The position numbers and the translations under genes were made by a program. A stretch of 64,000 bases of DNA. Source: Endomychus coccineus (taxonomy: Eukaryota > Arthropoda > Insecta > Coleoptera > Endomychidae). Position 1 is the first letter of the stretch. Each line of letters opens with the position of its first letter. The stretch is taken from assembly GCA_958510875.1 (NCBI GenBank), contig CAUEHT010000005.1:372001-436000 (forward strand). Reading direction: 5' to 3'. The notes beneath the pieces are model-generated. The model saw only the letters and a list, made by a program, of their open reading frames with translations. It ran no database searches and was not told the DNA's origin. Positions 3,288 to 42,693 of the stretch are shown here, one piece after another.

Positions 3288-3928
3288 AATCCAACGGACC
3301 GTGGTAAGACGAGAGTGGAATAGTTAATTCAGACAGCTCGGACAATGAAGGCACTCGCTGGGTTGGGTTCAAGAAAGTCGGTGATACAGTTTCATATCAT
3401 GATAGTTTCGGTAATTTACGCCCACCTCACGAACTAGTAAATTATTTCAAAAAGTAGAAGATATTCAATCACGACAATATTCAACAATATAACACTTATA
3501 ATCATGGTCAGTTATGTTTGGAATTGCTCTATAACTCTTCAGTTGCAGTCGACTAGAAGAAGGAATACAAATGGGATATAAACAGATTGACAATAAAGAT
3601 TTTATCAATCATGTCTCAGAAATTCACTATCACGGTTAAGCTCCCACATGTCTGTAGATTTTCATCCACCAATTGAACTAGATCCACATTCATATTATTC
3701 TATTGCACTCGATGAGAAAAAGGTTATAACTGTACCTACGGGGTCCTATGAGTTGAGCGACATTGCAGATTTCATACAAATAGAAGTTTTTGGGCAAGCA
3801 GTGAAATAAGAAGAACGTGACCGACAATTTTCAGCGTCGATACCTTTCATTTGAAACTCATAAAGTTATTTTTCGAAGGACAAAAATTTCAAACCCTTAT
3901 CGCGGGAGATGGATCGAATCGATCGCTA
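3288..3928 (+). pseudogene. Relic Polinton copy A: protease and penton-like remnants
   Basis: 3288-3555 aligns codon by codon with the protease gene of the complete Polinton (15718-16005): the equivalents of the GTHWVGF histidine box and the YxDSFGNLRPP box are readable, but a TAG stop follows KK at about 3454 and the cysteine region is altered. 3609 to about 3840 aligns with the 5' part of the penton-like gene (16057 onward), including FHPPIELDPHSYYSIAL, with internal deletions. Similarity fades before the mariner insertion at 3931. Flanking Polinton genes are gone, so this is an old fragment. Confidence 0.85.
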
Positions 3929-4260: not shown

Positions 4261-4476
4261 TAACTACAATCATTTCTAAATTACTTCATTTTACCGAAAG
4301 CGACATTTCAATGTAATTTTTTGTTCATCACAAAAAAAAACATTTATCGTTTGCGTTTTTTTGTCGAAAAAAACTGCAAATAAGTGTAGGAAAAGAATTT
4401 AGGCAAACTGTTATTTTAGTCCCATCATTGATTCAGTCTGGTCGCTTTTGAAGTTATTTTAATTTCACTGTACAAA

Positions 4477-5550
4477 ATGGTTTATTCCATTCCAGAACGA
4501 GTTGAAATTGTTAAACTTTATTTTCAAAATAATAGTTGTGCTAGACTAACTGCTCGCTTGTTTAAGGACAGTCATCCCGATAAAAATGTTAATGATTCGT
4601 ATGTTGCCAAGTTAGTTAGAAAGTTTGTCGATACCGGATCTGTTTGTAATGTGAAACACCAGCCGCAGAACCCCATCAGAAATGAAGCTGTGGAAGTCGC
4701 TGTTTTGGGGCATGTTCAATTGGATCATACTCAAAGTACCCGTCAACTAGCTGAAGCCTTAGGAGTCTCCCGTTCATCCATAATACGGATTTTAAAAGCG
4801 TACAAATTTCATCCGTACAAAATTAAATTAGTACAGGAACTAAATGAGGATGATCCTGATCGAAAGCTGCAATTTTGTGAACAAATGAGCCAGCGTTTAA
4901 TTGAAGATCCGCACTTATTGTTTAACATTTGTTTTACCGATGAGTGTACATTTTATTTGAATGGAGCTGTGAATAGGCATAATTGCCGTTACTGGGATGA
5001 CAGTAACCCACATTTATTCCGTGAGGTTCATACCCAATACCCTCAAAAAATAAACGTCTGGTGTGGCATATTAGGAAGTCATATCATAGGACCACTTTTC
5101 ATTCCTGGAAATTTAACTGGTGAAGTCTACCTAAACATGCTTGACGATGCAATTGATCTTTTCATAACACAGATAATAGAAGACGACCAAAATCATGATG
5201 CCGATCGGCTTCATTTCCAGCAAGATGGAGCACCTCCGCACTATGCTGCTCCTGTAAGAGAATTTTTAGATAACCGGTTCCCCGGACAGTGGATTGGAAG
5301 GAGAGGCCCAATTGAATGGCCTGCCAGGTCACCTGATTTATCGCCTTTGGACTTTTTTCTATGGGGACACTTGAAAAATAAATGTTTTGCTACGAAGCCC
5401 GAGTCCATAGAAGATCTTCGCCAACGGATTACAGCACAATGCAGAAGCATAACACCTGATATGCTACAAAATGTTAGAAATAGATTTGAACAAAATCTGT
5501 ATTATTGTATGGAAGCAAGTGGGTCACATTTTCAACACTTGTTGAAGTAA
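4477..5550 (+). CDS. Mariner-family transposase (DD41D), 357 aa, intact
   Basis: Cut-and-paste DDE/D transposase. The N-terminus (residues about 1-60, IPERVEIVKLYF...TARLF) is the DUF4817-type helix-turn-helix, followed by a second HTH around 85-110 (STRQLAEALGVSRSSIIRI); both would bind the TIRs. Catalytic residues by motif are D155 (FTDECTFYLNG), D250 (HFQQDGAPPHY) and D292 (SPDLSPLDFFLWG). There are 41 residues between the second and third, which defines the DD41D (rosa/Visitor-like) group by the Mos1 convention. The ORF starts at the first ATG after the TIR, is uninterrupted and of normal length, and ends shortly before the right TIR. Such genes are often mis-annotated as host 'Tc3/Mos1 transposase'. 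Confidence 0.93.
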   Translation: MVYSIPERVEIVKLYFQNNSCARLTARLFKDSHPDKNVNDSYVAKLVRKFVDTGSVCNVKHQPQNPIRNEAVEVAVLGHVQLDHTQSTRQLAEALGVSRSSIIRILKAYKFHPYKIKLVQELNEDDPDRKLQFCEQMSQRLIEDPHLLFNICFTDECTFYLNGAVNRHNCRYWDDSNPHLFREVHTQYPQKINVWCGILGSHIIGPLFIPGNLTGEVYLNMLDDAIDLFITQIIEDDQNHDADRLHFQQDGAPPHYAAPVREFLDNRFPGQWIGRRGPIEWPARSPDLSPLDFFLWGHLKNKCFATKPESIEDLRQRITAQCRSITPDMLQNVRNRFEQNLYYCMEASGSHFQHLLK

Positions 5551-7289: not shown

Positions 7290-8715
7290 TATACAGGGTG
7301 TTGGTATGAGAAAGAAGGTTGGGTTCACTAGTGCAATTGTAGATGGGGTAAGAAAAACTATGGAAATTACAAAATAAGATCGATGCATCAAATCTAAAGA
7401 AAACATCCCAACAGCGTTGAAAGTTGCGCGAAAACAATTCAAAATGTTCGATTACCAAAAGTAATTCCTATACCTAAGACGGGAGGAGTTCTACCATTTT
7501 TAATACCTCGGTTTCCGGATTATCAGCTGCTGGGGGTGGTACAGACATCGCTAAAACGATCGACGGTAGCAAAGCAGTTCGGAAAACCTTTGAGGAAACA
7601 GAAAGACATAATAAAAGAATGGAAGATATAGCTTTGGGAAAAGAGGGATCTGGTCTATATTTTAAGAAGTATCGCAAAGGTCTTGGTGAATATTTGAAGA
7701 AACGTCCAATGAAGCAGAGTAAACCTACCCTGAAGACCTCTAACTGATCTCGATCTACGAAAACTCACAAAAGCTCTGAAAATTCCCCATTTCAGAAGAG
7801 TATTTATGCATATCCATCTAACGGACCGTGGAAAAAAGAGTGGAATAGTTGATTTAGATACCTGGGACAGTGAAGGCACTCACTGGGTTGAGTTTAAGAA
7901 ATTCATTGATACAGTTTTATGTTATGATAGTCTAGGCAATTCACGCCCACCTCACGAACTAGTGGATTATTTCAAAAAGTGTAAGGTGATATTCAATCAC
8001 GACAATTTTCTGCAATATAACATTTATAATTGCGGTCAGTTATGTTTTGAATTCCACTATAACTCTTGTAGGCGGCTAGAAGAAGGAATGTAAGTTGGAT
8101 GTATTAGTACATACAAAGATTGTCAATAAGGTTTTTATCAATCATGTCTGAGACATTCTCTATCATGGGTAAGAACTCCCGCTTATATGTAAATTTTCAT
8201 CCACCAATAGAACTAGATCCTAATCTATATTGTTCTATTGCACTTGTCGGTTTGCATACGTATAATAGTATCCCGAACATTGAAGGAGGTGAGGAGAAGG
8301 TAATAACTACCTACAGGGTCCTATGCCGAACATGAATCCATATCGCTAGATATTTCCGGATGGTCGTATAAAGATGCAATGAGTTCAGCCTACAACAATA
8401 AAATTAATTTATGGATCCCGTTGACGGTTCTAATAGGTCTATTCACTTACTAAACCAAAGTATTGAATGGTAAACATATGCTGCGATTGATAAGATCTCG
8501 AACCGACAACGATTACTATAATAATAGCACAGGTGGCACGAAGAGGGCGAAAATAAATGTGAAGACGATAGCACTAAAAGTGCGATGTCTTTCCAAATGA
8601 TCAAGATTGGGCAGTTAAAACATCAATGAATCTGAAACATCCTAGATATATGATTCTAGCTTTCCAAACTGATCCAAAAAATTATCCTGTTAAGCAAAGT
8701 ACATATTTTGATATA
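7290..8715 (+). pseudogene. Relic Polinton copy B: PLA2-capsid, protease, penton, major capsid remnants
   Basis: The segment is collinear with 15170-17850 of the complete Polinton but decayed. About 7300-7690 matches the C-terminal half of the PLA2-domain minor capsid gene (GMRKKVGF, the hydrophobic segment, KKYRKGLG). 7745-8092 matches the protease (HWVEFKK, CYDSLGNSRPPHE, YNCGQL). 8141-8330 matches the start of the penton-like gene, which then jumps by deletion to the middle of the major capsid gene (8330-8715: SGWSYKDA, KINLWIPL, KHMLRLIRSRTDND). Frameshifts and stops occur in every gene. No integrase or ATPase remnant was seen nearby. Confidence 0.88.
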
Positions 8716-9213: not shown

Positions 9214-9219
9214 GTTCCG
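9214..9219. repeat. Target site duplication of the Polinton (left)
   Basis: GTTCCG, identical to 21837-21842 on the far side of the element. A 6-bp duplication is the hallmark of Polinton integration. Confidence 0.95.
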
Positions 9220-9449
9220 AGTAGATGAACTCCGCGCGTTCTCGACCAGGATATCCGGTCTCCACTTCCGGTCTAGCTGTCGATGTGCATCCGGTGCATG
9301 AGCTCGTCCTTATCAGTTTGAAAGGATGTAGGTGATAAGGATTTTATTTTATTTGTAAAGAGTATACAGGGTGTGTTCAAAAAGTGTGTCACATGTACAG
9401 AGTCACGTGACTAACACATGGCAGCATGGCGGCCCTAAGGTCCAACTGT

Positions 9450-9900
9450 CATGGCGACCATAAGGTCCAGCTGTCATGGCGAGCATAAGAACCAGCTGTC
9501 ATGGCGACCATAAGGACCAGCTGTCATGGCGACCATAAGGACCAGCTGTCATGGCGGCCATAAGAACCAGCTGTCATGGCGACCATAAGAACCAGCTGTC
9601 ATGGCGACCATAAGGACCAGCTGTCATGGCGACCATAAGGACCAGCTGTCATGGCGGCCATAAGAACCAGCTGTCATGGCGACCATAAGAACCAGCTGTC
9701 ATGGCGACCATAAGAACCAGCTGTCATGGCGACCATAAGGACCAGCTGTCATGGCGACCATAAGAACCAACTGTCATGGCGACCATAAGAACCAGCTGTC
9801 ATGGCGGCCATAAGGACCAGCTGTCATGGCGGCCATAAGGACCAGCTGTCATGGCGACCATAAGGTCCAGCTGTCATGGCGACCATAAGGTACAGCTGTC
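9450..9900. repeat. 25-bp minisatellite in the Polinton TIR
   Basis: About 18 tandem copies of CCAGCTGTCATGGCGACC followed by ATAAGGA or ATAAGAA (25 bp). Each copy has the CAGCTG palindrome. Units vary mainly at GACC/GGCC and GGA/GAA/GGT. The mirror array is at about 21150-21610. Confidence 0.9.
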
Positions 9901-10009
9901 ATGGCGAACCCAAGGTACAGACTGCTTCGTGGAGGGGGCTCCGCCACCTCTAGGAAGCAATCTGTACCTTTGGTCCAAAGGTACAGGCTGCTTCATGGAG
10001 ATGTCACCA

Positions 10010-10660
10010 CCACGTGACAGCTGTCATCGAAGGTACAGAATGCTTCGTGGAGATGTCGCCACCACGTGACAGCTGTCATGGCGACCCTTGGGTACAGGCT
10101 GCTTCATGGAGATGTCGCCACCATATGACAGCTGTCATGGTGAACCAAAGGTACAGGTTGCTTCGTGTAGGTGTCACCAACACGTGACAGCTGTCATGGT
10201 GAGCTAAAGGTACAGAACGCTTCGTGGAGATGTCGCCACCACGTGACAGCTGTCATGGTGACCCTTGGGTACAGGCTGCTTCATGGAGATGTCGCCACCA
10301 TATGACAGCTGTTATGGTGAACCAAAGGTACAGGTTGCTCCGTGTAGGTGTCACCAACACGTGACAGCTGTCATGGTGAGCTAAAGGTACAGAATGCTTC
10401 GTGGAGATGTCGCCACCACGTGACAGCTGTCATGGCGACCCTTGGGTACAGGCTGCTTCATGGAGATGTCGCCACCATATGACAGCTGTCATGGTGAACC
10501 AAAGGTACAGGTTGCTTCGTGTAGGTGTCACCAACACGTGACAGCTGTCATGGTGAGCTAAAGGTACAGGCTGCTTCGTGTAGGTGTCACGTGACAGATG
10601 TCATGGCGGACCGAAGGTACAGGCTGCTTCGTGTAGGTGTCACCACCACGTGACAAAGAC
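10010..10660. repeat. ~59-bp minisatellite in the Polinton TIR
   Basis: Tandem units alternate around CACGTGACAGCTGTCATGG, then GGTACAG, TGCTTCGTG and a GATGTCGCCACC or GGTGTCACCAAC block. Higher-order alternation of the unit types is visible. The mirror copy lies at about 20560-21110. No coding potential. Confidence 0.85.
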
Positions 10661-10770
10661 TGCTTTGTCATTGTTTCAATCCGGCGACCATAGTTTACGA
10701 ACGATGATGACGTCACTGCTTCGAACCGATGACAGTTACTGATTCAATCCGGCGACCATAGTTCACGAAC

Positions 10771-10808
10771 GATGATGACGTCATCATCGTTCACGAACTA
10801 TGATGGGC
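10771..10808. promoter_or_regulatory. Near-perfect palindrome with CRE-like core at inner TIR end
   Basis: About 38 bp reading GTTCACGAACGATGATGACG then its near reverse complement, centred on TGACGTCA, the CRE/ATF consensus. It recurs on the right arm at about 20367-20404. It could be a hairpin, a replication or packaging signal, or a transcription-factor site; the sequence alone does not decide. Confidence 0.5.
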
Positions 10809-10880
10809 TAATGAGGAATAAAATGTGAATAATCATAATGATTGTATTACATTCATACACATGTTTTTTCGCATGATTCA

Positions 10881-11040
10881 ACACATGCTTTAACATTCAG
10901 ACAAGTGTTTCAACATTCAGACACGTGTTTCAACATTCAGACACGTGTTTCAACATTCAGACACGTGTTTCAACATTCAGACACGTGTTTCAACATTCAG
11001 ACACGTGTTTCAACATTCAGACACGTGTTCCAGCATTCAT
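10881..11040. repeat. 20-bp tandem repeat, eight copies
   Basis: Exact 20-bp periodicity of ACACGTGTTTCAACATTCAG, with diverged outer units at each end. Every core unit has the palindrome CACGTG. It lies between the left TIR and the ATPase gene and has no mirror on the right, so it may be promoter-associated. The 97-codon frame at 10842-11135 is only the translation of this repeat and is not called as a gene. Confidence 0.85.
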
Positions 11041-11135
11041 ACCTATTTAACATGTATTTGATACCTGATTTTGACAGAACCGTAGGAGCATCTAACCGCG
11101 CGATCAGACATACACAATATAACATCATCATCTAG

Positions 11136-11143
11136 TATATAAA
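11136..11143 (+). promoter_or_regulatory. TATA-like box upstream of ATPase gene
   Basis: TATATAAA within CTAGTATATAAAC, 17 bp before the ATPase ATG at 11161. The same AGTATATAAA word precedes the penton-like gene. With normal TATA-to-start spacing the transcript would begin at or just after the ATG region, implying a very short leader or a different start. Confidence 0.4.
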
Positions 11144-11160
11144 CAAATGCTTATTAACAT

Positions 11161-11886
11161 ATGTTCCAGTATGATTTCGATTCGCCTTCAGGCATGATGA
11201 AGATTGTGAAGCAAAAAGACTCGTTGAGTATTATGAACTTAGGGTCAAGCAATGAGAATGTTGAACAACCACAACGTCACAGCTCTTTGCTGCCTAATAC
11301 TCTACGAACAATAATCTGTGGTCCAAGTAATTGTGGGAAAACAAATGTGATGTTATCTCTATTGTTAGATGCAAACGGTCTGAAATTTGAAAACGTGTAC
11401 ATATATTCAAAGTCTTTACACCAACCAAAATACCAGTTACTAAAGGAGACATTGAAGAAAATTGAGGGGCTTGGATATTTTCCTTGTACCGAAAGTGATG
11501 AGGTCATAGACCCCACAGAAGCGAGGCCTAATTCAATCATAATATTCGATGACGTGATGTTTGAGAAACAGGAGAAAATTCGTGCTTATTTTTCAAGAGG
11601 GAGACACAACTCAATTGATAGTTTCTATCTTTGTCAGTCTTTTGCTAAATGTCCAAAACATGGATTGCGCGACAATGCCAATTGCTTGATTATTTTCAAA
11701 CAGGATGAGCTCAATTTGAAACATATATTCACCGATCATATAAGTACCGACATGTCACTCGAAAAATTCAAAGAGATATGTAGCGTATGTTGGAAAGATA
11801 AATATGGATTCCTTATGATAAACAAAGACTGTGATATGAACAAAGGACGTTATCGCAAAGGTTTTGATAGTTATATATACATCTAA
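11161..11886 (+). CDS. Polinton packaging ATPase (A32/FtsK-HerA type), 241 aa
   Basis: This P-loop ATPase is expected to pump DNA into capsids. Walker A is GPSNCGKT at residues 54-61 and Walker B is IIIFDD at about 126-131. The conserved SRGRHNSIDSFYLCQSFAK stretch follows at about 145-163, as in poxvirus A32-like ATPases of Polintons. The gene is complete, starts at the first ATG after a TATA-like box, and ends about 40 bp before the next gene. Family assignment is strong. Confidence 0.93.
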   Translation: MFQYDFDSPSGMMKIVKQKDSLSIMNLGSSNENVEQPQRHSSLLPNTLRTIICGPSNCGKTNVMLSLLLDANGLKFENVYIYSKSLHQPKYQLLKETLKKIEGLGYFPCTESDEVIDPTEARPNSIIIFDDVMFEKQEKIRAYFSRGRHNSIDSFYLCQSFAKCPKHGLRDNANCLIIFKQDELNLKHIFTDHISTDMSLEKFKEICSVCWKDKYGFLMINKDCDMNKGRYRKGFDSYIYI

Positions 11887-11928
11887 CATGTATATATACT
11901 TTCATTTGAAATAGACAACCCGCTCAGC

Positions 11929-12993
11929 ATGGACGTGGGTGTGAGTAACACGCTTAAAGAAAAACAACAATTGAAGAAAAAAATTTGGGAGTTAGCAAAC
12001 GTTGTGAGGAAAAAATATATGGCTGTGAAATTGGGTAAAGCTGAAAATGATGAGATTCTAGATAATATGTTCAGGAATGTATCTAAACCTCTGGAGGAAA
12101 TTGCGAAAAATGCTGAAATAATCAAACAAAATTCGTTGGTTAAACCTAAAAGTATTGTTTCTACAGCAACACAAATGGAGAACATACCAATCCCAAATAT
12201 TGTAACTGAAGGGGAAGAGTTCGTATATAACCCCCAAAATACTGAGGAGGATGTGTTTACCCTCGAACCTACTATCGATCAGATTCGTGAAGAATTCAGA
12301 AAACATAAGAAAGATAATGCAGAGGCTACAGAGGAGTTTCTGCAACAATACCCCACATTAGCACGTTATTACTTGGAAGGATTCCTATTGGATGATGATG
12401 TCAAGAAATACGATGATAGAATGGGATTGCAATATAATTCAACTTTAGACAAATGGTTCATGGGTAATCAACCTATAGAAATTGATAGTGAGAGTAATAT
12501 AATTATCAAGGGTACTCCGTTCAAGGGTACCACAGGACTGTATAATTTGATATTTTATAGAGATGTTCTACCTGATACTTACACTGTGGAAGATGGGAAA
12601 AATTACAGTCAAATGATGGAAATGACTAGTGCCCATAGGCGTAATAACGATCCAGCTGATCGAATAAGAAACATTGTAAAATACAAAAATGTACTGAAAC
12701 CTTTGATTAATTCCATGAAAAGACCCAGAGCCAAAACATACACTGGAAGTGCATATATCAAAAATGATATGCTTGAATATAACGAGAAACCTATCGAATA
12801 TGTTTATTGGGATGACGTTAACGAAATTGTGGATAGACTGAGACTTCTTGTTGCATCCTCGCATGCAGGTAACCATAATCATCACAATGAGATAATCTCT
12901 ATAATAGAAGAATTGATAGAGGCAGGGGTAATTGAACAAAAACCAGGTGTAAGACAAATTCATCTCAGTTATAAAGATGGTTTCAATGGATAA
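11929..12993 (+). CDS. Conserved Polinton protein of unknown function (DUF8207-like), 354 aa
   Basis: The N-terminal ~70 residues are charged and helical (KEKQQLKKKIWELANVVRKK), then a low-complexity acidic linker. A globular part from about 165 contains TPFKGTTGLYNLIF. A conserved C-terminal block reads EYVYWDDVNEIVDRLRLLVA and ends with the HNHHNEIISIIEEL stretch. That block is very common in insect Polinton-associated proteins, which I recall as DUF8207. Its role is unknown; position between ATPase and fibre-like gene suggests a virion function. The stop overlaps the next ORF start by 17 bp, which implies coupled or overlapping expression. Confidence 0.8.
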   Translation: MDVGVSNTLKEKQQLKKKIWELANVVRKKYMAVKLGKAENDEILDNMFRNVSKPLEEIAKNAEIIKQNSLVKPKSIVSTATQMENIPIPNIVTEGEEFVYNPQNTEEDVFTLEPTIDQIREEFRKHKKDNAEATEEFLQQYPTLARYYLEGFLLDDDVKKYDDRMGLQYNSTLDKWFMGNQPIEIDSESNIIIKGTPFKGTTGLYNLIFYRDVLPDTYTVEDGKNYSQMMEMTSAHRRNNDPADRIRNIVKYKNVLKPLINSMKRPRAKTYTGSAYIKNDMLEYNEKPIEYVYWDDVNEIVDRLRLLVASSHAGNHNHHNEIISIIEELIEAGVIEQKPGVRQIHLSYKDGFNG

Positions 12994-13630
12994 GTTTGGC
13001 AGAGCCTCCTCTTCCATGTGGATATATGATACAAATGTATTTAATAATAATTTCAAACAAGTTCACGGACAAGGATTATTCCTAACGAGCGATGGAAGTT
13101 ATGATATGGAAAATCGTAGATTGTGCAACGTAAAATCACCGAATGATGATGGAGATGTTGCAAATAAAGTATATGTTGATAAATTAACACACAAACTGAA
13201 TCTGAAAACGGAAACCAGTCTTAAAGATACCTTCAATGTTAGGGTTGATAATTTGATCAAAGATATCAACAAGGATCTGGATGAACATAACTTAACGAAT
13301 GACGAGGTTATTCTCAACATTGATAAACATCTGATGGACATTCAGAATAAATATAATGGAATGGGGATCTATATAAAATCAGAGTATAAAACAATCAGTG
13401 ATAGTGTGAGGGAAAACAGAAATGAATTGAAAGAGATCAATAACACATTTAACAGTGTGAACATGCGTCTAAATGACATTACTAGTAAAGTGGAGGCGTT
13501 AGAACGACGGATGACATCTGTGGAACCTTCTAAGAAGAGACCCTCATCATCCACAACAACAAAGCAGGGCTCTGTGAAACGTATATCTCCAAATCCTGTG
13601 AATATACCCAAAAAATTAATTCTACACTAG
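12977..13630 (+). CDS. Fibre/spike-like coiled-coil protein, 217 aa
   Basis: Near the N-terminus (residues about 40-67) is a phage-tail-fibre-like motif: MENRRLCNVKSPNDDGDVAN followed by KVYVDK, matching the pattern 'N.RI.NV..P.D..DAV.K.YVD'. Long heptad-rich coiled coils follow at about 70-175, and then a short basic Ser/Thr-rich tail. This architecture suits a trimeric fibre or spike anchored in a capsid. The start overlaps the upstream gene by 17 bp. Function is inferred from motif and shape; no receptor-binding head is recognisable. Confidence 0.6.
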   Translation: MVSMDKFGRASSSMWIYDTNVFNNNFKQVHGQGLFLTSDGSYDMENRRLCNVKSPNDDGDVANKVYVDKLTHKLNLKTETSLKDTFNVRVDNLIKDINKDLDEHNLTNDEVILNIDKHLMDIQNKYNGMGIYIKSEYKTISDSVRENRNELKEINNTFNSVNMRLNDITSKVEALERRMTSVEPSKKRPSSSTTTKQGSVKRISPNPVNIPKKLILH

Positions 13631-13647
13631 ATTTCCACATTGATAAG

Positions 13648-14571
13648 ATGAGTAGAGAACAAGTTGTGCATGAGCTTCATAAGCCGAGTAGGAAGAATTT
13701 CAAACGACGCAGAACGATCATAAAAGGTTTGGATGATTTGTGGCAAATGGATCTGGCAGAAATGGGTAATTACGCTCGTGAAAATAGAGGATTCAAATAC
13801 ATTTTGATTATGATCGATTGTTTCTCGAAATTTCTATGGACACGCCCGCTGAAAACAAAATCAGCCGAAGAAGTTCGGAAAGCGGTCAGTTCTATATTGC
13901 TAGAAGGACATCGTAAGCCTAGGAATCTGCAAAGCGATCAGGGAAAAGAATTCTTCAATAAACACTTTAACGATCTAATGAAGAAACATAATATCAATCA
14001 TTATAATACGTATAGTGTGAAAAAAGCAGCCATTGCTGAACGTGTCATTCGAACGTTAAAGGAATCGCTCTACAAACATTTCAGTCTCAGCGGGAAATAC
14101 AAATGGCTTGATATACTTGAAGAAACCACAGAAAAATATAATAAACGTAAACATAGTACTATAAATATGGCTCCAATAAAAGTGACGAAACAGATTGAGA
14201 GCGAGATATTGAAGCGATCCTACTCACACATCAAGTTAGCTCTGCCTCACAAATTCAACGTAGGAGATGTGGTACGAATAAGTAAGGCTAAACATATTTT
14301 TGAGAAGGGATTTACGCCCAATTGGAGTACGGAATTATTTAAAATCATCAAAGTAAAAATTACCAACCCGGTCACATATCTACTAGAAGATATGACCAAC
14401 GCACCAATCAGCGGCTGTTTCTACGAGGAAGAATTACAGAAAACAAAACAACCCGATGTGTATTTAGTCGAAAAAATATTACGAAAGAGGAGGGGTCAAC
14501 AGTATGTGAAATGGTTGGGTCTAGATAATAATCACAACAGTTGGATCAATAATTCGGATCTCGTTCAATGA
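13648..14571 (+). CDS. Polinton retrovirus-like integrase with chromodomain, 307 aa
   Basis: DDE integrase that would insert the element and create the 6-bp duplication. Catalytic residues by motif are D35 (WQMDLAEM), D97 (LQSDQGKEF) and E131 (AIAERVIRTLKE). An SH3-like C-terminal DNA-binding region follows around FNVGDVVRISK (about 205-260). A chromodomain (about 270-307: VYLVEKILRKRRG, YVKWLGLDNNHNSW) ends the protein, as in other Polinton integrases. The N-terminal HHCC zinc finger of retroviral enzymes is absent, as is common in this group. It starts 17 bp after the fibre-like gene stop and is intact. Confidence 0.94.
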   Translation: MSREQVVHELHKPSRKNFKRRRTIIKGLDDLWQMDLAEMGNYARENRGFKYILIMIDCFSKFLWTRPLKTKSAEEVRKAVSSILLEGHRKPRNLQSDQGKEFFNKHFNDLMKKHNINHYNTYSVKKAAIAERVIRTLKESLYKHFSLSGKYKWLDILEETTEKYNKRKHSTINMAPIKVTKQIESEILKRSYSHIKLALPHKFNVGDVVRISKAKHIFEKGFTPNWSTELFKIIKVKITNPVTYLLEDMTNAPISGCFYEEELQKTKQPDVYLVEKILRKRRGQQYVKWLGLDNNHNSWINNSDLVQ

Positions 14572-14851
14572 ATCCATCATTGATCATCTGGAGATTATTA
14601 GGAACAAACAAATAGCTGGAATATTATTGACTCGAGGGTATGGTTATTATAATAGAACAAAAATTCCGTGAATATGAGGGTGAATCAAGAGTGAAGATTA
14701 TAATATTTGAAACATATATTGTTAAGATTATACTTAAGTCTTTTGTATTGAGAAAATTTTGAAATTAATAAAAAATATTATTTTGAGATCTTTGATCTTT
14801 CTCCCTCCCCTCGTTAAATAACGGTGCAATCTTGAATTTTCATCAGTCTGT
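14572..14851. other. Polinton intergenic spacer
   Basis: 280 bp, AT-rich, without a gene. AATAAAAAATATT at about 14766 is a plausible polyadenylation signal for the leftward gene block. A short inverted repeat AGATCTTTGATCT lies at about 14786. A promoter for the PLA2 gene presumably lies here but no clear TATA box is visible. Confidence 0.5.
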
Positions 14852-15634
14852 ATGGAAGCGTACGTAGGAGAAGGTGTTCTCAATACGCTTATAAACAAGC
14901 TCCCGTTTGAACTTCATATTCCTGGTTATCAATTCTGTGGTCCCGGTACAAAATTAGAAGAACGGTTGAGAAGAGGAGATTCAGGTATCAATCCACTCGA
15001 TAAAGCTTGCCGCCAACACGATATTTCATATCTGCGAAACGCTAGTTTGGAAGGACGTCACGAGGCGGATAAAATATTAGAGAACGCTGCTTGGCAACGT
15101 GTCAAATCTAAAGACACAAAATTTGGAGAAAGGATTGCCGCTTTCGGTGTAAATAAAATTATGAAGGCAAAGAGGAAATTGGGAATGGGTATGAGAAAGA
15201 AGGTTGGGTTCGGAAGTGCAATTGTCGATGGAGTGAGAAAAGTTATGAAGAATAAGTTTGACTCATCCAATCTGAAGAAAACATCCCAAACAGCGTTGAA
15301 AGTTGCACGAAAACAATTCAAAAAAGCGGGTGGTCGGAAAAATGTTCGGTTACCAAGAGTAATTCCTATTCCAAAGACTGGAGGATTTCTACCATTTTTA
15401 ATACCTCTGTTTGCCGGCTTATCAGCTGCTGGAGCATTGGCGGGGGGTGGTGCAGGCATCGCTAAGGCCGTCAACGACAGCAAAGCAGCTCGGAAAACCT
15501 TGGAGGAAACGGAAAGATATAATAAAACAATGGAAGCTATAGCTTTGGGGAAACAAGGATCTGGTCTATATTTGAAAAAGTATCGCAAAGGTCTTGGTCT
15601 ATATTTAAATAAACATCCAAAAAACTGTCAGTAA
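14852..15634 (+). CDS. Minor capsid protein with parvovirus-VP1-like phospholipase A2 domain, 260 aa
   Basis: The N-terminus has the PLA2 calcium loop GYQFCGPG (25-32) and the catalytic HD..Y (QHDISY, H56-D57, Y60), the pattern of the parvovirus VP1-unique PLA2 domain used for endosomal escape. The middle is basic. A hydrophobic segment (about 178-207, FLPFLIPLFAGLSAAGALAG) and a C-terminal GLYLKKYRKGLGLYL tail resemble adenovirus pX/pVI-like minor capsid proteins of Polintons. The last codons contain a slippery A_AAA_AAC (15619-15625) that puts ribosomes into the protease frame. The gene is intact. Confidence 0.88.
   Translation: MEAYVGEGVLNTLINKLPFELHIPGYQFCGPGTKLEERLRRGDSGINPLDKACRQHDISYLRNASLEGRHEADKILENAAWQRVKSKDTKFGERIAAFGVNKIMKAKRKLGMGMRKKVGFGSAIVDGVRKVMKNKFDSSNLKKTSQTALKVARKQFKKAGGRKNVRLPRVIPIPKTGGFLPFLIPLFAGLSAAGALAGGGAGIAKAVNDSKAARKTLEETERYNKTMEAIALGKQGSGLYLKKYRKGLGLYLNKHPKNCQ
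15619..15625 (+). promoter_or_regulatory. Candidate -1 ribosomal frameshift site A_AAA_AAC
   Basis: The heptamer is phased exactly as X_XXY_YYZ in the PLA2-gene frame (codons CCA AAA AAC), two sense codons before the UAA. A -1 slip leads directly into the open frame that runs on through the protease. That frame, between 15625 and the first ATG at 15718, is fully open and encodes the family-typical protease N-terminus (PRRPLTDLDLLKLAK and IPHFRGVFMRD). No strong downstream pseudoknot is obvious; only a 4-bp stem CAGA/TCTG near 15642-15654 was seen. Confidence 0.65.
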
Positions 15635-16005
15635 ACCTACCCAGAAGACCTCTGACCGATCTCGATCTACTAAAACTAGCAAAAGCTCTGAAAATTCCCC
15701 ATTTTAGAGGAGTATTTATGCGTGATGAACTACCATCCAACGGACCATGGAAAAACGAGCGTGGAATAGTTAATTTAGATAGCTCGGACAATGGAGGCAC
15801 TCACTGGGTTGGGTTTAATAAAGTCGGTGATACAGTTTTATATTATGATAGTTTTGGCAATTTACGCCCCCCTCGCGAACTAGTGGATTATTTCAAAAAG
15901 TGTAAGATATTATTCAATCACGATAATTTTCAACAATATAACACTTATAATTGTGGTCAGTTATGTTTAGATTTCCTCTCTAACTCTTCAGTTGTGCTCG
16001 ACTAA
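15626..16005 (+). CDS. Adenain-like cysteine protease of Polinton
   Basis: Maturation protease of the capsid. Counting from the in-frame ATG at 15718, the catalytic residues by motif are H29 (GTHWVGF), D44 (YYDSFGNLRPP), Q72/Q73 and C79 (YNTYNCGQLC). The open frame has no ATG upstream of 15718, yet 15626-15717 encodes a conserved N-terminal helix seen in other Polinton proteases. The true protein therefore probably begins by -1 frameshift from the minor capsid gene rather than at 15718. The start is given just after the slippery heptamer. The alternative is initiation at 15718 giving a truncated 95-residue enzyme, or an unseen splice. Confidence 0.88.
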
Positions 16006-16020
16006 CCCTGCATTTATTAG

Positions 16021-16028
16021 TATATAAA
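16021..16028 (+). promoter_or_regulatory. TATA-like box upstream of penton-like gene
   Basis: TATATAAA within TTAGTATATAAATAG, 28 bp before the ATG at 16057. Relic copy A keeps ATATAAA at the equivalent place, while copy B has lost it. It matches the box before the ATPase gene. Confidence 0.5.
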
Positions 16029-16056
16029 TAGATTGTTGGTAAAGTTTGCATCAATC

Positions 16057-16800
16057 ATGTCTCAGACGTTCACTATCACGGGTAAGAGCTCCCGCTTATC
16101 TGTAGATTTCCACCCACCTATAGAACTAGATCCTCATTCATATTATTCTATCGCACTTGTTGGCTTGCATACGTACAATAGCATTCCGAACATTGAAGAA
16201 GGTTTTAATAAATTTTATTATAAAAATGTGAAGGGTGAGGAAGAAGTAGTAACTATACCTACGGGGTCCTACGAGTTGACAGACATCGAGAATTTCATAC
16301 AAAGTGCAGTTTGTGGGATAGGAGTGAAGCAAGAAGAACGTGACCGGAAATTATCAATAAAATCTAACAACAACACTCTACACACAGAGCTGAAGAGTGA
16401 TTTTGAAGTGAATTTTATTCCTAAAGATAGTATAAGCGAACTGTTGGGATTCAGCAAAAAGAAATTGACATCTCGCGAACTACACGTATCTGATCGACCT
16501 ATAAACATAATCAAAGTTCAAACAATACGTGTTGAGTGTAACTTAACCGCAGGAGCATATTATAACAATAAGATAGCTCATACGATATATGAGTTCTCAC
16601 CTCTTGTACCACCTGGGTTTTCCATTGATATAGAGCCGAAGAATCTTATTTATCTACCGGTCATCAGCAAGACGTCCTTCGATAACATCACGCTGAATAT
16701 TTTAGATCAGAATTGGAAACCGGTAAATTTTCGTGGAGAAGAAATTATTATACGATTGGAATTGAAAAAGATCGTTAGGGATTATACCTCACAACAATAA
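16057..16800 (+). CDS. Penton-like (single jelly-roll) minor capsid protein, 247 aa
   Basis: The protein lies between protease and major capsid gene, the standard place of the Polinton penton homologue. It starts MSQTFTITGKSSRLSVDF and is beta-rich, with conserved HPPIELDPHSYYSIALVGLH near the N-terminus and IPTGSYELTDIENFI at about residues 67-81. The open frame extends upstream to 16033, but only with TTG, so the ATG at 16057 is chosen; both relic copies conserve this ATG context (ATCAATCATGTCT). It would form the capsid vertices. It is intact, and an AATAAA follows the stop. Confidence 0.85.
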   Translation: MSQTFTITGKSSRLSVDFHPPIELDPHSYYSIALVGLHTYNSIPNIEEGFNKFYYKNVKGEEEVVTIPTGSYELTDIENFIQSAVCGIGVKQEERDRKLSIKSNNNTLHTELKSDFEVNFIPKDSISELLGFSKKKLTSRELHVSDRPINIIKVQTIRVECNLTAGAYYNNKIAHTIYEFSPLVPPGFSIDIEPKNLIYLPVISKTSFDNITLNILDQNWKPVNFRGEEIIIRLELKKIVRDYTSQQ

Positions 16801-17016
16801 ATAATAATCCAATACTCACCACCACTCATTATATGAAAGGAATTCAACTGAGAAGGTTGCAGTAGCCATCACTTGAGAACATGGGTTTGGATTTCAGCAA
16901 TAAAAGACATCTCCATAGTGGTCATCAGTCATTATCTACAACGAGCTCGAGGGAGAAGGTTGCTTCTGCATCACTATCATTGGAAAATATCAATTTTTTG
17001 AAGTCCCTTGGTTACA
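16801..17016. other. Spacer between penton and major capsid genes
   Basis: 216 bp without a gene. An imperfect internal duplication is visible: ACTGAGAAGGTTGCAGTAGC-like and GGGAGAAGGTTGCTTCTGC-like blocks about 100 bp apart, each followed by CATCACTTGAGAA / CATCACTATC. This may be a promoter repeat for the capsid gene. Confidence 0.35.
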
Positions 17017-18219
17017 ATGTCGGAAAAACTTCAAATATTCAACGAGCCAAACTTCAATGAAGACATCATCCGAGAAGAAACTCATACCTACTATCCCCAC
17101 ACAACATCTTTTGGCAACAGCGATGAAATTGAGATATTAATCAATCAACAAGATGTGTTGGTAGATTTGGCCTCGTCTGCTTTATTCATCGAGGCAGAAT
17201 TCCAGCCAGAAGCAAGTGGTGATGGTGAATGTAAACTAACGAATAATTTCGGAGCGTTTCTCTTCGAATATATCAGTTATGAATTGAATGGAAAAGAGAT
17301 AGACAAAGTACGTGATCCTGGTATTGTCAGCACCATCAGAGCTTATCTAACATATGCCAAACATGAATCTATACCTCTAGCTATTTCTGGATGGTCATTT
17401 AAGGATGTATTGAGTTCAGTCTACAATAATAAAATCAATTTATGGATACCGTTGAATTTTCTACTAGGCCTATTCATTGACTATAACAAAGTTTTGAGTG
17501 GAAAACATAAGCTGCGCTTGATAAGGTCTCGAACCGATAACGATTGCTATACTAATAGCACAGGCACGAAAACGGCTAAAATAAATGTGAAGACGATAGC
17601 ATTAAAAGTGCGACATGTGTTTCCAAGTGATCAAGTTAAATTTCAAATGTTGGGGAATTTGAGTGCTGAGAAGCCTATTTTGATTCCATTCCGTAGTTGG
17701 GATCTGCATGAAAATCCGTTGATGAAGGAGAGCACTCGCGACATTTGGGCTGTTAAAACTTCGATGAATTTGGAACGACCCAGATATGTGATTCTAGCTT
17801 TCCAAACTGATCGAAAAAATAATCCTGTTAAGCACAGTGCATATTTCGATAATATAAACTTGCTGAATGTTAAATTATACTTGAATTCAGAGTGTTATCC
17901 ATATGAAGCAATGAAATTGAATTTCACCGACCAGCAATACGTGGAAGCATACCAGATGTACTATGATTTCCAGAAATCATTTTCAAATAAAATAATAAGC
18001 GAACCCATGTTGGATTATATAGCATTCAAGAATAGAGCAATTTTTGTGATTGACTGTTCAAAACAAAACGATGCTATAAAGTCATCAACAGTTGACGTCA
18101 AACTAGAGATGGAAAGTTTCCTGAATTTCCCCAAAAACACCAGGGCTTATTGCATCATCATTAACGATCGTATAATGGAGTATTCTCCGATTACAGGATC
18201 AGTTCGGAATTTGGTGTGA
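17017..18219 (+). CDS. Polinton major capsid protein (double jelly-roll, hexon-like), 400 aa
   Basis: This matches the Polinton major capsid signatures: FEYISYELNGKEIDKVRDPG near residue 90, the INLWIPLNFLLGLF block around 145, KHKLRLIRSRTDNDCY around 165-185, and RPRYVILAFQTDRKN around 260, followed by a YLNSECYPY block. Size is slightly below the usual range for the family. ATG 17017 is chosen over the upstream TTG at 17008. It would assemble the icosahedral shell with the penton-like protein. It is intact, and its closest relatives in the window are the broken copies A and B. Confidence 0.92.
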   Translation: MSEKLQIFNEPNFNEDIIREETHTYYPHTTSFGNSDEIEILINQQDVLVDLASSALFIEAEFQPEASGDGECKLTNNFGAFLFEYISYELNGKEIDKVRDPGIVSTIRAYLTYAKHESIPLAISGWSFKDVLSSVYNNKINLWIPLNFLLGLFIDYNKVLSGKHKLRLIRSRTDNDCYTNSTGTKTAKINVKTIALKVRHVFPSDQVKFQMLGNLSAEKPILIPFRSWDLHENPLMKESTRDIWAVKTSMNLERPRYVILAFQTDRKNNPVKHSAYFDNINLLNVKLYLNSECYPYEAMKLNFTDQQYVEAYQMYYDFQKSFSNKIISEPMLDYIAFKNRAIFVIDCSKQNDAIKSSTVDVKLEMESFLNFPKNTRAYCIIINDRIMEYSPITGSVRNLV

Positions 18220-18290
18220 AGAACCAGGTGATGAATCATAATGTTATAATTTATGTTCTAAATGATGTACTATCAAAATGTATCTTTCCC

Positions 18291-18296
18291 AATAAA
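18291..18296 (+). terminator. Polyadenylation signal after major capsid gene
   Basis: AATAAA 71 bp downstream of the major capsid stop, followed by T/AT-rich sequence. It plausibly ends the late capsid transcript. Confidence 0.45.
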
Positions 18297-18557
18297 TGTT
18301 ATTTATTATTATTATATTTGATATTTTATTTCTCAAACGGTAGGTGGTGATGTAAACATCCGACGATCATAGTTTGTAAACTATGGTAGTCGGTTGCTGG
18401 AAATGAAACAAATTGAAACAACTAGTGACGTTATCAGTCAGTTATCAACGTTTGCAATGATATCGAAACGGAGAGTTACCCCCCCACCCTCACTATTCAC
18501 GTTCACGTTCTCACGTATGTAAGAGAGAATCATTTCAGAAAATGTTCAGTTATAAAA
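18297..18557. other. Polinton spacer before MSV199 gene
   Basis: About 260 bp without a gene. It contains GATCATAGTTTGTAAACTATGG at about 18364, an inverted repeat related to the words repeated in the inner TIR (CATAGTTTACGAAC), and a C-rich CCCCCCACCC patch at 18480. These could be regulatory, but nothing is proven. Confidence 0.4.
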
Positions 18558-19555
18558 ATGAACTTAGCAGCGTGCGTTCGTGATTCAAATGTGGCTACAT
18601 GGTCCACCAACAATTTTATTAAGTTAACAGTTAATGAAGTGTGTCTAAAATTTGGGATCGATATAAGAAACGATAAAAGAAACTATTTATTTTGGAATAT
18701 TCAACTAAACCAACGCGTTCTGATGAATGAAGATCTATTGGATTGGTTAGGTTATCGCGGCAAAAAATATCATGCTAAAAAGGGTGTTATAACAAGATTG
18801 TTGAGGAAAAACCCGCATATACACCATTTAGAAATTTGTGATAAGACTGATGCACGAAAGAAATATTATGTTCTAGATGCTATTGATTTCGAATCATTAT
18901 TGATGCAAATGCGAACTCCTAAAGTCATCGAGTTACGTGAACTGTTTTCGTTAATGAAATTTATTATGATGAAATATTGTGAGTACGAGAAATTCTATGA
19001 ACAACAAGAACGTGAAAGAGCTGAGGAACGTGAATGTCTTGCGAATGAACGATCTCAACGCTTATCTCAACAAATTCAAATGAATGTTATCACCTTACGG
19101 AATAACATTGCACCAAATATTGTTCCACCTCCTATAAATTTTGGAAAGAGACGAAATTTAGGTAATTACTTTGTTTTTTATAATAAAATTTATATAATAT
19201 ATATTATTTAGGATTATATCGAACATCGAATGATATGAGACCAGAATGGTACCTAATGCGTCGACAGGAGGATGGTTGGCGTGATGCCGACAGAAAATTA
19301 CAAAATCGGGGGATGCGATTAATACGTAAATGGTCTAACATATCTCATGCTATCGATATTGGTAACGAAGTGAAACAGAATTTCCGCCGCGATTTGAAAT
19401 GGTATGCAAGAGGAAATATTATTCATGCCGCAGAAGAAGAGGGGGGTGAACAATTGATTAGTGATATCAACATCGAGTCATTGATAGAATGTGTTATCAA
19501 TCACAAAAATAAAGCTTATGAACTAGCAAATGATAATGTCAATATATTATTATAA
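18558..19555 (+). CDS. MSV199/DUF3627-type protein with a probable 50-nt intron
   Basis: The first part (18558-19161) encodes the MSV199-type domain known from entomopoxviruses and iridoviruses (DWLGYRGKKYHAKKGVIT, then LDAIDFESLLMQ). A coiled, Glu/Arg-rich segment follows. The second part (19212-19555) looks like the DUF3627-type domain that often follows MSV199 (RPEWYLMRRQEDGW, MRLIRKWSN). The halves are in different frames, separated by an AT-rich GT...AG segment 19162-19211 of 50 nt. Removing it restores one frame of 315 codons. Unspliced reading ends at a TAG at 19209-19211. Such proteins probably bind nucleic acid; the role in Polintons is unknown. Confidence 0.65.
19162..19211 (+). other. 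Probable spliceosomal mini-intron
   Basis: GTAATTAC...TTATTTAG, 50 nt and nearly all A/T apart from the splice sites. Exon phase is 1, and joining gives an uninterrupted frame. The domain boundary falls exactly here. Confidence 0.55.
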
Positions 19556-19600
19556 TTATCATTCCTTTTGTTTTATTAAAACACTTATATCTTCATACAA

Positions 19601-20104
19601 TCATTTATTTACATGGTAAATAGCCTTCTTTACATATTTAACAAACATTTTCAACATTAGTACTGATAAAGAAGATAAAATTGCATACAAAATTGCGAAA
19701 ATTTTAGAAATTTCTTCGTCTAGTGAGGATGATGTACGTGTGGATGGTGTTGATATTGTCTTTTGTATGACATGTGGTAAACATGATGATTGTTGGAGCA
19801 ATTGCCATTCAGCCATATCACCCTCACTCCGATCAAAGAATAAAAGTTTAAGTTTATAATGTATGGTGGTACGATTATCTTGAGGAATGTTGAATGCGAA
19901 TACCTCTAATTGATTATCGTTGATTTTTCTAAAATTCATCGGAATCCATTCGGTACGGTTACACCCCCCACCACCATCGGTTGCAACATCCTTCAGACAA
20001 ATATAAATGCGCTCCACGTGTTGGGGAACGTTTGCGTATAGAATACCATTCAGAATTGTGGTTAGAATCACGAAATTTGTTTTTAACATCCCCACTCCCA
20101 TCAT
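19601..20104 (-). CDS. Candidate type I membrane glycoprotein of the Polinton, 167 aa
   Basis: From the first ATG (20104) the N-terminus has a signal-peptide-like hydrophobic run (KTNFVILTTILNGILYANV). An ectodomain with cysteines and two N-glycosylation sequons (CNRTEW, DNRTTI) follows, then a Ser/Thr-rich stalk. A hydrophobic segment near the C-terminus (ISKIFAILYAILSSLSVLML) comes before a short basic tail. It is the last gene before the right TIR and on the opposite strand, where Polintons often carry variable cargo. I do not recognise the family; envelope-like function is inference from topology. The 3' end lies 45 bp from the convergent MSV199 gene. Confidence 0.5.
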   Translation of the reverse strand: MMGVGMLKTNFVILTTILNGILYANVPQHVERIYICLKDVATDGGGGCNRTEWIPMNFRKINDNQLEVFAFNIPQDNRTTIHYKLKLLFFDRSEGDMAEWQLLQQSSCLPHVIQKTISTPSTRTSSSLDEEISKIFAILYAILSSLSVLMLKMFVKYVKKAIYHVNK

Positions 20105-20252
20105 TATCTTCACTTTTTGCACTTGTAAATGTATTCAACAGTCTTATAACTTTTATTTTATGTTCGTAAAAATTCAAGTCTCTTCTTAGTTCATGAACTT
20201 TCTCCACAAATTTTCTAAGTATACGTGTGTATTCTTCAAAAGATATATGCAT
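19959..20252 (-). CDS. Small helical ORF overlapping the membrane protein gene, 97 aa
   Basis: It begins with an ATG at 20252 (MHISFEEYTRILRKFVEKVHELRR...), with a charged coiled-coil-like first half of about 45 residues. The second half, after about residue 50, overlaps the membrane-protein gene in another frame and loses coding character. It may be a separate small gene, or the 5' exon of the membrane-protein gene joined by splicing or frameshift. I found no decisive splice pair. Confidence 0.35.
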   Translation of the reverse strand: MHISFEEYTRILRKFVEKVHELRRDLNFYEHKIKVIRLLNTFTSAKSEDNDGSGDVKNKFRDSNHNSEWYSIRKRSPTRGAHLYLSEGCCNRWWWGV

Positions 20253-20319
20253 AATGACACATTTACAAACTTACTGGATATCTTTATCATAACCTCCAAC
20301 TATTCACATTTACACATAG

Positions 20320-21836
20320 AGTATCATTATTATTACTCGCATTTCATTCCTCATCTGACCATCATAGTTCGTGAACGATGATGACGTCATCATCGTTCGT
20401 AAACTATGGTCGCCGGGTTGAATCAGTTACTGTCATTGGCTTGAAGCAGTGACGTCATCATCGTTCGTGAACTATGGTCGCCGGATTGAATCAGTTACTG
20501 TCATCGGTTCGAAGCAGTGACGTCATCATCGTTCGTAAACTATGGTCGCCGGATTGAAACAATGACAAAGCAGTCTTTGTCACGTGGTGGTGACACCTAC
20601 ACGAAGCAGCCTGTACCTTCGGTCCGCCATGACATCTGTCACGTGACACCTACACGAAGCAGCCTGTACCTTCAGCTCACCATGACAGCTGTCACGTGTT
20701 GGTGACACCTACACGGAGCAACCTGTACCTTTGGTTCACCATAACAGCTGTCATATGGTGGCGACATCTCCATGAAGCAGCCTGTACCCAAGGGTCACCA
20801 TGACAGCTGTCACGTGGTGGCGACATCTCCACGAAGCGTTCTGTACCTTTAGCTCACCATGACAGCTGTCACGTGTTGGTGACACCTACACGAAGCAACC
20901 TGTACCTTTGGTTCACCATGACAGCTGTCATATGGTGGCGACATCTCCATGAAGCAGCCTGTACCCAAGGGTCGCCATGACAGCTGTCACGTGGTGGCGA
21001 CATCTCCACGAAGCATTCTGTACCTTCGATGACAGCTGTCACGTGGTGGTGACATCTCCATGAAGCAGCCTGTACCTTTGGACCAAAGGTACAGATTGCT
21101 TCCTAGAGGTGGCGGAGCCCCCTCCACGAAGCAGTCTGTACCTTGGGTTCGCCATGACAGCTGTACCTTATGGTCGCCATGACAGCTGGACCTTATGGTC
21201 GCCATGACAGCTGGTCCTTATGGCCGCCATGACAGCTGGTCCTTATGGCCGCCATGACAGCTGGTTCTTATGGTCGCCATGACAGTTGGTTCTTATGGTC
21301 GCCATGACAGCTGGTCCTTATGGTCGCCATGACAGCTGGTTCTTATGGTCGCCATGACAGCTGGTTCTTATGGTCGCCATGACAGCTGGTTCTTATGGCC
21401 GCCATGACAGCTGGTCCTTATGGTCGCCATGACAGCTGGTCCTTATGGTCGCCATGACAGCTGGTTCTTATGGTCGCCATGACAGCTGGTTCTTATGGCC
21501 GCCATGACAGCTGGTCCTTATGGTCGCCATGACAGCTGGTCCTTATGGTCGCCATGACAGCTGGTTCTTATGCTCGCCATGACAGCTGGACCTTATGGTC
21601 GCCATGACAGTTGGACCTTAGGGCCGCCATGCTGCCATGTGTTAGTCACGTGACTCTGTACATGTGACACACTTTTTGAACACACCCTGTATACTCTTTA
21701 CAAATAAAATAAAATCCTTATCACCTACATCCTTTCAAACTGATAAGGACGAGCTCATGCACCGGATGCACATCGACAGCTAGACCGGAAGTGGAGACCG
21801 GATATCCTGGTCGAGAACGCGCGGAGTTCATCTACT
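20320..21836. repeat. Polinton right terminal inverted repeat
   Basis: Reverse complement of the left TIR: TGACGTCA palindromes (three copies at about 20360-20540 against two on the left), ~59-bp array, 25-bp array (about 21150-21610), then the unique outer 230 bp ending ...AGTTCATCTACT. The extra inner repeat unit shows that the two arms are not being kept perfectly identical. Confidence 0.95.
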
Positions 21837-21842
21837 GTTCCG
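21837..21842. repeat. Target site duplication of the Polinton (right)
   Basis: GTTCCG, identical to 9214-9219. Confidence 0.95.
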
Positions 21843-39221: not shown

Positions 39222-39249
39222 AGCCGGATTTTGAGGTCGGTATCGTTGT

Positions 39250-42689: not shown

Positions 42690-42693
42690 CATG
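42690..42693. repeat. Target duplication of gypsy element (right)
   Basis: CATG, pairs with 34456-34459. Confidence 0.9.

What the first reader, a model, noticed from the sequence alone, without database searches (positions are those of the whole stretch)
9220..21836. Complete, recently inserted Polinton with no DNA polymerase B
Seen: AG/CT ends, identical 6-bp flanks GTTCCG, long TIRs, and intact integrase, ATPase, protease and both capsid genes. Known: Polintons normally carry a protein-primed PolB of about 1,000 residues. Here the genes fill the internal ~9.5 kb and leave no space for it. Inference: this is a streamlined lineage that replicates using a helper Polinton or host polymerase, with a full virion and integration toolkit retained, a virus-satellite-like strategy. 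Intact ORFs argue against simple decay.
Basis: partly seen in the sequence, partly recalled or inferred. Interest (0 to 1): 0.88.

Follow-up and report, generated by a model that had tools for sequence, protein, structure and literature searches.

The report
Polymerase-less Polinton satellite with barcoded ends
In this insect-like genome a 12.6-kb virus-like Polinton that has capsid and integrase genes but no DNA polymerase is present in many near-identical copies, and it shares its end repeats with a separate 19-kb Polinton whose predicted DNA polymerase likely copies both.

Summary
9220-21836 is a complete insertion with 6-bp target duplications, AG...CT ends, terminal repeats whose outer 1192 nt match perfectly, and no PolB. 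It is not a lone deletion copy. The own genome (906 Mb) holds at least 104 full-length, ~100% identical capsid genes of this type; none lies within 20 kb of any listed PolB locus, and ten copies read in pieces have the same layout. The genome also holds a 19-kb element with a predicted polymerase (at least 37 copies) and the same tips. Of 46 tip-paired elements in the listed part of one contig, 38 are PolB-less and 8 are the 19-kb type. The two are not parent and deletion product: capsids are 41% identical and a sister grouping is rejected, yet integrases are sisters (84%) and outer repeats 97-99% identical. Best reading: a Polinton satellite with its own capsid that likely uses the relative's polymerase in trans. 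New and unexplained: terminal positions 9-27 are a hypervariable 19-nt barcode, shuffled between copies and shared by both types, yet the same at both ends of 42 of 46 elements. I read it as a footprint of protein-primed replication. Helper use and virions are inferred.

The parts
9214..9219 (.). target-site duplication, left (GTTCCG)
9220..10783 (+). left terminal inverted repeat with 25-, 59- and 68-bp tandem units
   Evidence: outer 1192 nt identical to the right arm
9228..9246 (+). hypervariable 19-nt tip 'barcode' (positions 9-27), left
11158..11886 (+). packaging ATPase (Pox_A32-like)
   Evidence: PF04665 26.2 bits, cut-off 22.8
11887..12993 (+). ORF2, function unknown; 40% identical homologue in the 19-kb element
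12953..13630 (+). ORF3, coiled-coil-type weak hits only; 42% identical homologue in the 19-kb element
13534..14571 (+). rve integrase; 84% identical to that of the 19-kb element
14822..15634 (+). phospholipase-A2-domain protein
   Evidence: PF08398 1.9e-10
15619..15625 (+). A_AAA_AAC heptamer, predicted -1 frameshift site joining the PLA2 and protease frames
   Evidence: seen in 9 of 10 copies and in the 19-kb element
15613..16005 (+). adenain-like cysteine protease
   Evidence: C5, E 0.023, below cut-off; 57% identical homologue in the 19-kb element
16021..16800 (+). minor capsid (penton) candidate, named by gene position and homologue only
   Evidence: no Pfam hit; 44% identical homologue in the 19-kb element
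17002..18219 (+). major capsid protein, double jelly roll
   Evidence: PF21738 2e-89
18429..19211 (+). MSV199-domain protein
   Evidence: PF10553 26.1 bits, cut-off 22.4
19187..19555 (+). ORF of unknown function
19601..20134 (-). ORF of unknown function; 42% identical homologue next to the repeat of the 19-kb element
20450..21836 (-). right terminal inverted repeat
21810..21828 (-). hypervariable 19-nt tip, right, identical to the left one
21837..21842 (.). target-site duplication, right (GTTCCG)

Best explanation
It is a 12.6-kb PolB-less Polinton, recently amplified in its own genome, that shares end repeats and a sister integrase with a 19-kb Polinton carrying a predicted DNA polymerase, and it likely uses that polymerase in trans as a satellite with its own capsid. 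Shown: no PolB, a complete insertion, many near-identical copies, shared outer repeats and integrase with an element that holds an open polymerase-like ORF, and different capsid lineages. Inferred: in a cell where both are active, the relative's PolB primes from the shared tips and copies both genomes; the satellite's own ATPase, protease and capsid proteins package it; and its own integrase inserts it with a 6-bp duplication. The 19-nt variable tip, the same at both ends, is predicted to arise when short nascent strands change template during protein-primed initiation, after which one end is copied onto the other.
For: 104 scored full-length capsid copies (of 4500 first-look candidates), all listed at 100% identity with open frames. 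0 of 104 lie within 20 kb of 76 PF03175 loci typed from a cut list (nearest 26 kb) or of the 37 scored copies of the 19-kb element's polymerase (nearest 44.5 kb). 10 of 10 copies read in pieces are collinear with the window, with small losses or inserts in some. 9 of 9 copies with both tips in hand have perfect and different 6-bp duplications. pN/pS 0.23 over 98 of 110 ORF-copies. Tip pattern: 654 + 641 matches, 0 + 0 in the control. The first 100 tips give 46 pairs: 38 short, all typed PolB-less, and 8 long, all typed as the 19-kb family. The 19-kb element has a 1258-aa ORF with six PolB motifs in order. Its outer repeat is 99.4% identical over 159 nt, 96.7% over 450. Integrases are sisters (SH-aLRT 99), a capsid sister grouping is rejected (AU p 1e-119). 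The same barcode occurs in both types.
Against: No replication, transcript or particle was seen; all is genomic. The polymerase ORF is not hit by Pfam PF03175, NCBIfam, PHROGs or the PDB; its single-sequence fold failed (pLDDT 32); against a PF03175-type ORF a two-sequence BLASTP over motifs B-C gave E 0.004 but hhalign only 0.75% probability. Its identity rests on motifs whose patterns I set after reading the sequence. Other PolB families are abundant, so another helper is possible. 8 of the 100 listed tips had no partner and 4 of 46 pairs differ between ends; one of nine copies differs at one tip site. Several copies carry indels or a stop.
Confidence: 0.72

Rival explanations
1. It is an internal-deletion derivative of a PolB-bearing Polinton, an ordinary non-autonomous transposon amplified passively.
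For: PolB-bearing elements with the same outer repeats exist. A closer PolB-bearing parent outside the scored lists cannot be excluded.
Against: Capsid 41%, ATPase 55%, PLA2 55% and protease 57% identical to the 19-kb element, with integrase 84%. Capsid sister grouping rejected. The gene block ATPase-ORF2-ORF3-integrase points the opposite way relative to the capsid genes in the 19-kb element. Genes stay under purifying selection.
Confidence: 0.12
2. It replicates with host polymerases (integrase cut-and-paste plus host repair or replication) and needs no helper.
For: The integrase ORF is intact in the window; host polymerase use is always possible.
Against: Tips differ between copies but match within a copy (42 of 46; 8 of 8) and are shared with the PolB-bearing type. 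This fits copying of one end onto the other in a shared linear-DNA replication pool better than cut-and-paste.
Confidence: 0.1
3. The helper is another PolB-bearing Polinton of this genome, such as the PF03175-positive families with frames of about 1270 or 1764 codons.
For: 76 loci of such families typed from the listing.
Against: Only one of these loci lies in the C1 stretch (0.4-116 Mb) covered by the listed tips (10.67 Mb), and no listed tip is near it; their own ends were not read, so this is weak.
Confidence: 0.06

Closest known systems
Polintons / Mavericks (family name Eupolintoviridae as in a passage of PMC12567637; adintoviruses)
   Same: 6-bp duplications, AG...CT ends, long terminal repeats, rve integrase, A32-like ATPase, double-jelly-roll capsid
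   Different: No PolB, which is a defining gene; 12.6 kb; ends shared with a different Polinton
Meldviruses with adenovirus-class virion genes but no recognizable PolB and integrase (passages of PMC11071296)
   Same: Virion genes without PolB
   Different: Here the integrase is kept, no other replicase was found, and a PolB-bearing relative with the same ends sits in the same genome
Polinton-like viruses and virophages (passages of PMC11071308)
   Same: Capsid-bearing; virophages are helper-dependent
   Different: They carry other replication proteins; none was found here. Virophages depend on giant viruses, not on a sister element with the same ends
Dependoparvoviruses with adenoviruses (recalled)
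   Same: Works alike: own capsid, helper's functions
   Different: Unrelated genes; ends not shared with the helper (recalled)

Membership tests
Polinton / Maverick | 6-bp target-site duplication | tested here: met
   9 of 9 copies with both tips in hand
Polinton / Maverick | AG...CT ends with long terminal inverted repeats | tested here: met
Polinton / Maverick | rve integrase with chromodomain | tested here: met
   PF00665 56.2 bits over cut-off; chromodomain 20.3 bits, below cut-off 25.1, so the second half is weak
Polinton / Maverick | packaging ATPase | tested here: met
   PF04665 over cut-off
[quoted passage not shown]
   PF21738 300 bits
Polinton / Maverick | adenain-like protease | tested here: inconclusive
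   C5 hit below cut-off; homologue in the 19-kb element
[quoted passage not shown]
   no Pfam hit; not folded
Polinton / Maverick | protein-primed DNA polymerase B | tested here: not met
   no room and no hit in the window; ten copies collinear with it
Polinton-like virus (PLV) | other replication protein in place of PolB | tested here: not met
   no helicase, primase or polymerase family over its cut-off in the ORFs given; one SNF2-type hit below cut-off (E 0.11, MSV199 ORF)
Non-autonomous deletion derivative | remaining sequence nearly identical to the autonomous parent | tested here: not met
   against the 19-kb element: capsid 41%, ATPase 55% identical; AU test
Satellite virus | needs a helper's replication enzyme | not testable with these tools
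   inferred from shared ends and missing polymerase
Satellite virus | forms its own particles | not testable with these tools
   capsid genes open and constrained; no particle data

The most novel reading that the evidence does not exclude
The 19-nt tip is a combinatorial barcode rewritten at replication: in the first ~27 nt of protein-primed synthesis the nascent strand switches between the ends of co-replicating helper and satellite genomes, and the new tip is then copied onto the other end before integration. Each inserted copy would be a record of one shared replication event, and helper and satellite would form one recombining pool of ends with two separate capsid lineages.
Probability: 0.35. 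Interest if true: 0.9.

Novelty: new variant of a known kind. Interest (0 to 1): 0.8.

Why it matters
Viruses with their own capsid that lean on a helper are known beside adenoviruses and giant viruses (recalled; virophage abstracts), but my searches showed none among animal Polintons. Here a helper candidate and a satellite sit in one genome in many young copies with the same ends, so dependence, copy-number competition and gene exchange become directly testable. The variable, end-matched tips could be a readable trace of how Polintons replicate.

Tried and rejected
Viral contig scans with the capsid protein and with a 26-row alignment found no relatives. PHROGs gave transposase-type and unnamed hits for the integrase and otherwise only hits of E 0.049 or weaker for the 10 ORFs given. 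A stem downstream of the slippery heptamer is not better than shuffles (z -0.16). The single-sequence fold of the polymerase's C-terminal 819 residues was useless. The 28-nt match at 18366 to an inner repeat unit was noted but not explained. I considered decay (rejected: open ORFs and pN/pS 0.23), simple deletion (rejected by capsid and orientation) and chance tips (control 0 and 0).

Limits. Copies were picked by hand from the listed capsid hits (10 of 104), so they lean to young, intact copies. The tip pattern demands exact flanks, so it leans the same way. The 100 tips parsed are the first listed of 1295, all on one contig. In one search, 12 of 110 ORF-copies with indels or partial cover were dropped and one stop was kept; differences private to the window count once per copy. 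In one search two of ten copies were left out: one with masked bases, one whose right tip lay outside the stretch; one copy (C11) lacks about 280 bp of the core, one (C1:122.88) about 110 bp, and one (C105) has an unidentified insert of about 1.3 kb near its right end. The trees are quick searches on 34 of 120 listed integrase relatives and 37 of 120 listed capsid relatives; the window capsid's own place in its tree is unresolved. Motif patterns were set after seeing the protein; motifs A-B-C in order came up in 0 of 20000 shuffles. About 2 kb of the 19-kb element was not read.
Full report
OBSERVATION. The element at 9220-21836 is real and complete. It is flanked by GTTCCG on both sides and its outer 1192 nt are perfectly complementary. 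Inside the repeats lie, in order, an A32-like ATPase, ORF2, ORF3, an rve integrase, a PLA2-domain protein, an adenain-like protease, a minor-capsid candidate, a double-jelly-roll capsid protein, an MSV199-domain protein and a short ORF on the plus strand, and one ORF on the minus strand. There is no PolB and no room for one: no gap between the ORFs exceeds about 375 bp, the longest antisense ORF is 189 aa, and no polymerase family was hit by the 20 ORFs given.

COPIES. The window lies in a 906-Mb, 129-contig genome. With the capsid protein as query, 104 matches were scored of 4500 first-look candidates; all are full length, listed at 100% identity and open. Ten copies fetched in pieces are collinear with the window; the main core alignments are about 98.9-99.7% identical and one stretch of the C11 copy is 96%; three copies have a loss of about 110 or 280 bp or an insert of about 1.3 kb, and one is partly masked. 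In nine cases with both tips in hand (window plus eight, 12.3-13.0 kb) the 6-bp duplications are perfect and all different, so each is a separate insertion. Over 98 of 110 ORF-copies, 113 non-synonymous and 127 synonymous differences give pN/pS 0.23, with the capsid gene at 4 to 28 (the copies were picked by capsid, so that gene is favoured). The type has therefore spread recently while its genes stayed under constraint.

THE POLYMERASE-BEARING RELATIVE. A pattern for the extreme tip (AGTAGATG, 19 free bases, CAGGATAT) gave 654 forward and 641 reverse matches and none for the control. The first 100 listed, all on contig 1, form 46 left-right pairs and 8 singles. Sizes fall in two groups: 38 of 46 at 9.5-14.8 kb and 8 of 46 at 19.1-22.7 kb. 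All 38 short ones are the PolB-less type: 11 hold a listed capsid copy, and 27 of 27 mid-element samples match it at 92.9-100%. One long element read in pieces carries a 1258-aa ORF with exonuclease and polymerase motifs of a family-B polymerase in order (motif knowledge recalled), plus homologues of nine of our eleven ORFs, not of the MSV199 and 19187-19555 ORFs (about 2 kb unread). In the seven other long elements, 14 of 14 samples match the same family and the polymerase was seen in 6 of 7. Genome-wide, 37 full-length copies of this polymerase were scored of 2978 first-look candidates, 32 without a stop. None of the 104 capsid copies is within 20 kb of any of these 37, or of 76 loci of other PolB families typed from a cut list.

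IS THE ORF A POLYMERASE? Pfam, NCBIfam, PHROGs and the PDB did not name it beyond an endonuclease-VII stretch. A two-sequence BLASTP to a PF03175-type ORF aligns motifs B and C (E 0.004), but hhalign gives 0.75% probability, and the fold failed. I call it a PolB on six motifs in order with usual spacing; patterns were set after reading it, and motifs A-B-C came up in 0 of 20000 shuffles.

NOT A DELETION FORM. Identities between the two types are: capsid 41%, minor-capsid candidate 44%, ORF2 40%, ORF3 42%, ATPase 55%, PLA2 55%, protease 57%, but integrase 84%. Behind the tip the outer repeat is 99.4% identical over 159 nt and 96.7% over 450; similarity ends about 0.7 kb in. In the integrase tree the two are sisters with support 99, while the best outside relative is 68% identical. 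In the capsid tree the 19-kb element groups with two other sequences at support 100, and a tree with the two capsids as sisters is rejected (log-likelihood 197 worse, AU p 1e-119). Ends and integrase are thus shared, the virion module is not. ATPase-ORF2-ORF3-integrase points the other way relative to the capsid genes in the 19-kb element.

BARCODED TIPS. Across nine left tips, 15 of 19 columns at positions 9-27 vary, against 3 of 187 other columns in the first 205. Of 46 elements, 43 have different 19-mers, yet 42 of 46 have the same 19-mer at both ends. In a complete genome-wide list for one rarer variant (19 tips), 8 of 8 pairs match and 3 tips have no partner; that list fixes three of the 19 positions on both ends, so it tests the other sites only. 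Among 105 site pairs 91 show all four combinations, and mean r2 falls from 0.31 at 1 nt to 0.10 or less beyond; neighbouring blocks still show some association. One 19-mer is found both in a PolB-less element and in two elements holding a polymerase copy. So the last 27 nt recombine very often, across both types, and the two ends are made equal.

MECHANISM. Shown: missing PolB, amplification, shared ends and integrase, an open polymerase-like ORF elsewhere. Inferred: the relative's polymerase, primed at the shared tips, copies both; the PolB-less element packages itself with its own capsid genes and inserts with its own integrase. The matched ends fit a linear replication form in which one end is copied onto the other, as in protein-primed genomes such as adenovirus (recalled). 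Template change by short nascent strands would limit shuffling to the tip.

FRAMESHIFT. The first ATG of the protease frame lies inside its conserved part, and the frame lies -1 to the PLA2 frame; A_AAA_AAC sits at the overlap (15619-15625), in 9 of 10 copies (the tenth lacked the search anchor) and in the 19-kb element. A -1 frameshift making a PLA2-protease fusion is predicted; no significant downstream stem was found.

LITERATURE. Passages read: PMC11071296 and PMC11071308, PMC6431247 and PMC12567637. The listings of searches (titles and abstract starts) showed no animal Polinton satellite of this kind and no variable tips; the library lacks most subscription journals, and the adintovirus paper PMC8502044 is not held.

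VERDICT. A PolB-less Polinton type with its own virion genes, likely a satellite of a co-resident PolB-bearing Polinton. The variable, end-matched tips are the least expected part and the mechanism for them is tentative.

Noticed in passing
window 3284-3833 and 7297-8713: Two decayed relics of the same lineage (PLA2, protease, minor-capsid candidate and capsid pieces, 79-87% nt identity), same strand, just upstream: the lineage is old in this genome.
   Followed up: partly
window 15619-15625; L042 about 1571: Conserved A_AAA_AAC at the PLA2/protease frame overlap, predicted -1 frameshift.
   Followed up: partly
window 18366-18393: Palindromic 28-nt stretch between the capsid and MSV199 genes resembling an inner repeat unit (D8).
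   Followed up: no
window 18429-19211: MSV199-domain protein whose 12 database relatives include a protein of Microctonus hyperodae filamentous virus (60% identity); no homologue was found in the pieces read of the 19-kb element, so a gain from an insect DNA virus is possible.
   Followed up: partly
G000, e.g. L001-L008: Other PolB families with PF03175 and long open frames are abundant in this genome.
   Followed up: no
window 4432-5550; 36711-40652; 42528-43815; 44231-45070: Mariner-like and gypsy-like ORFs and a repeated reverse-transcriptase-like ORF pair; names recalled from sequence, not searched.
   Followed up: no
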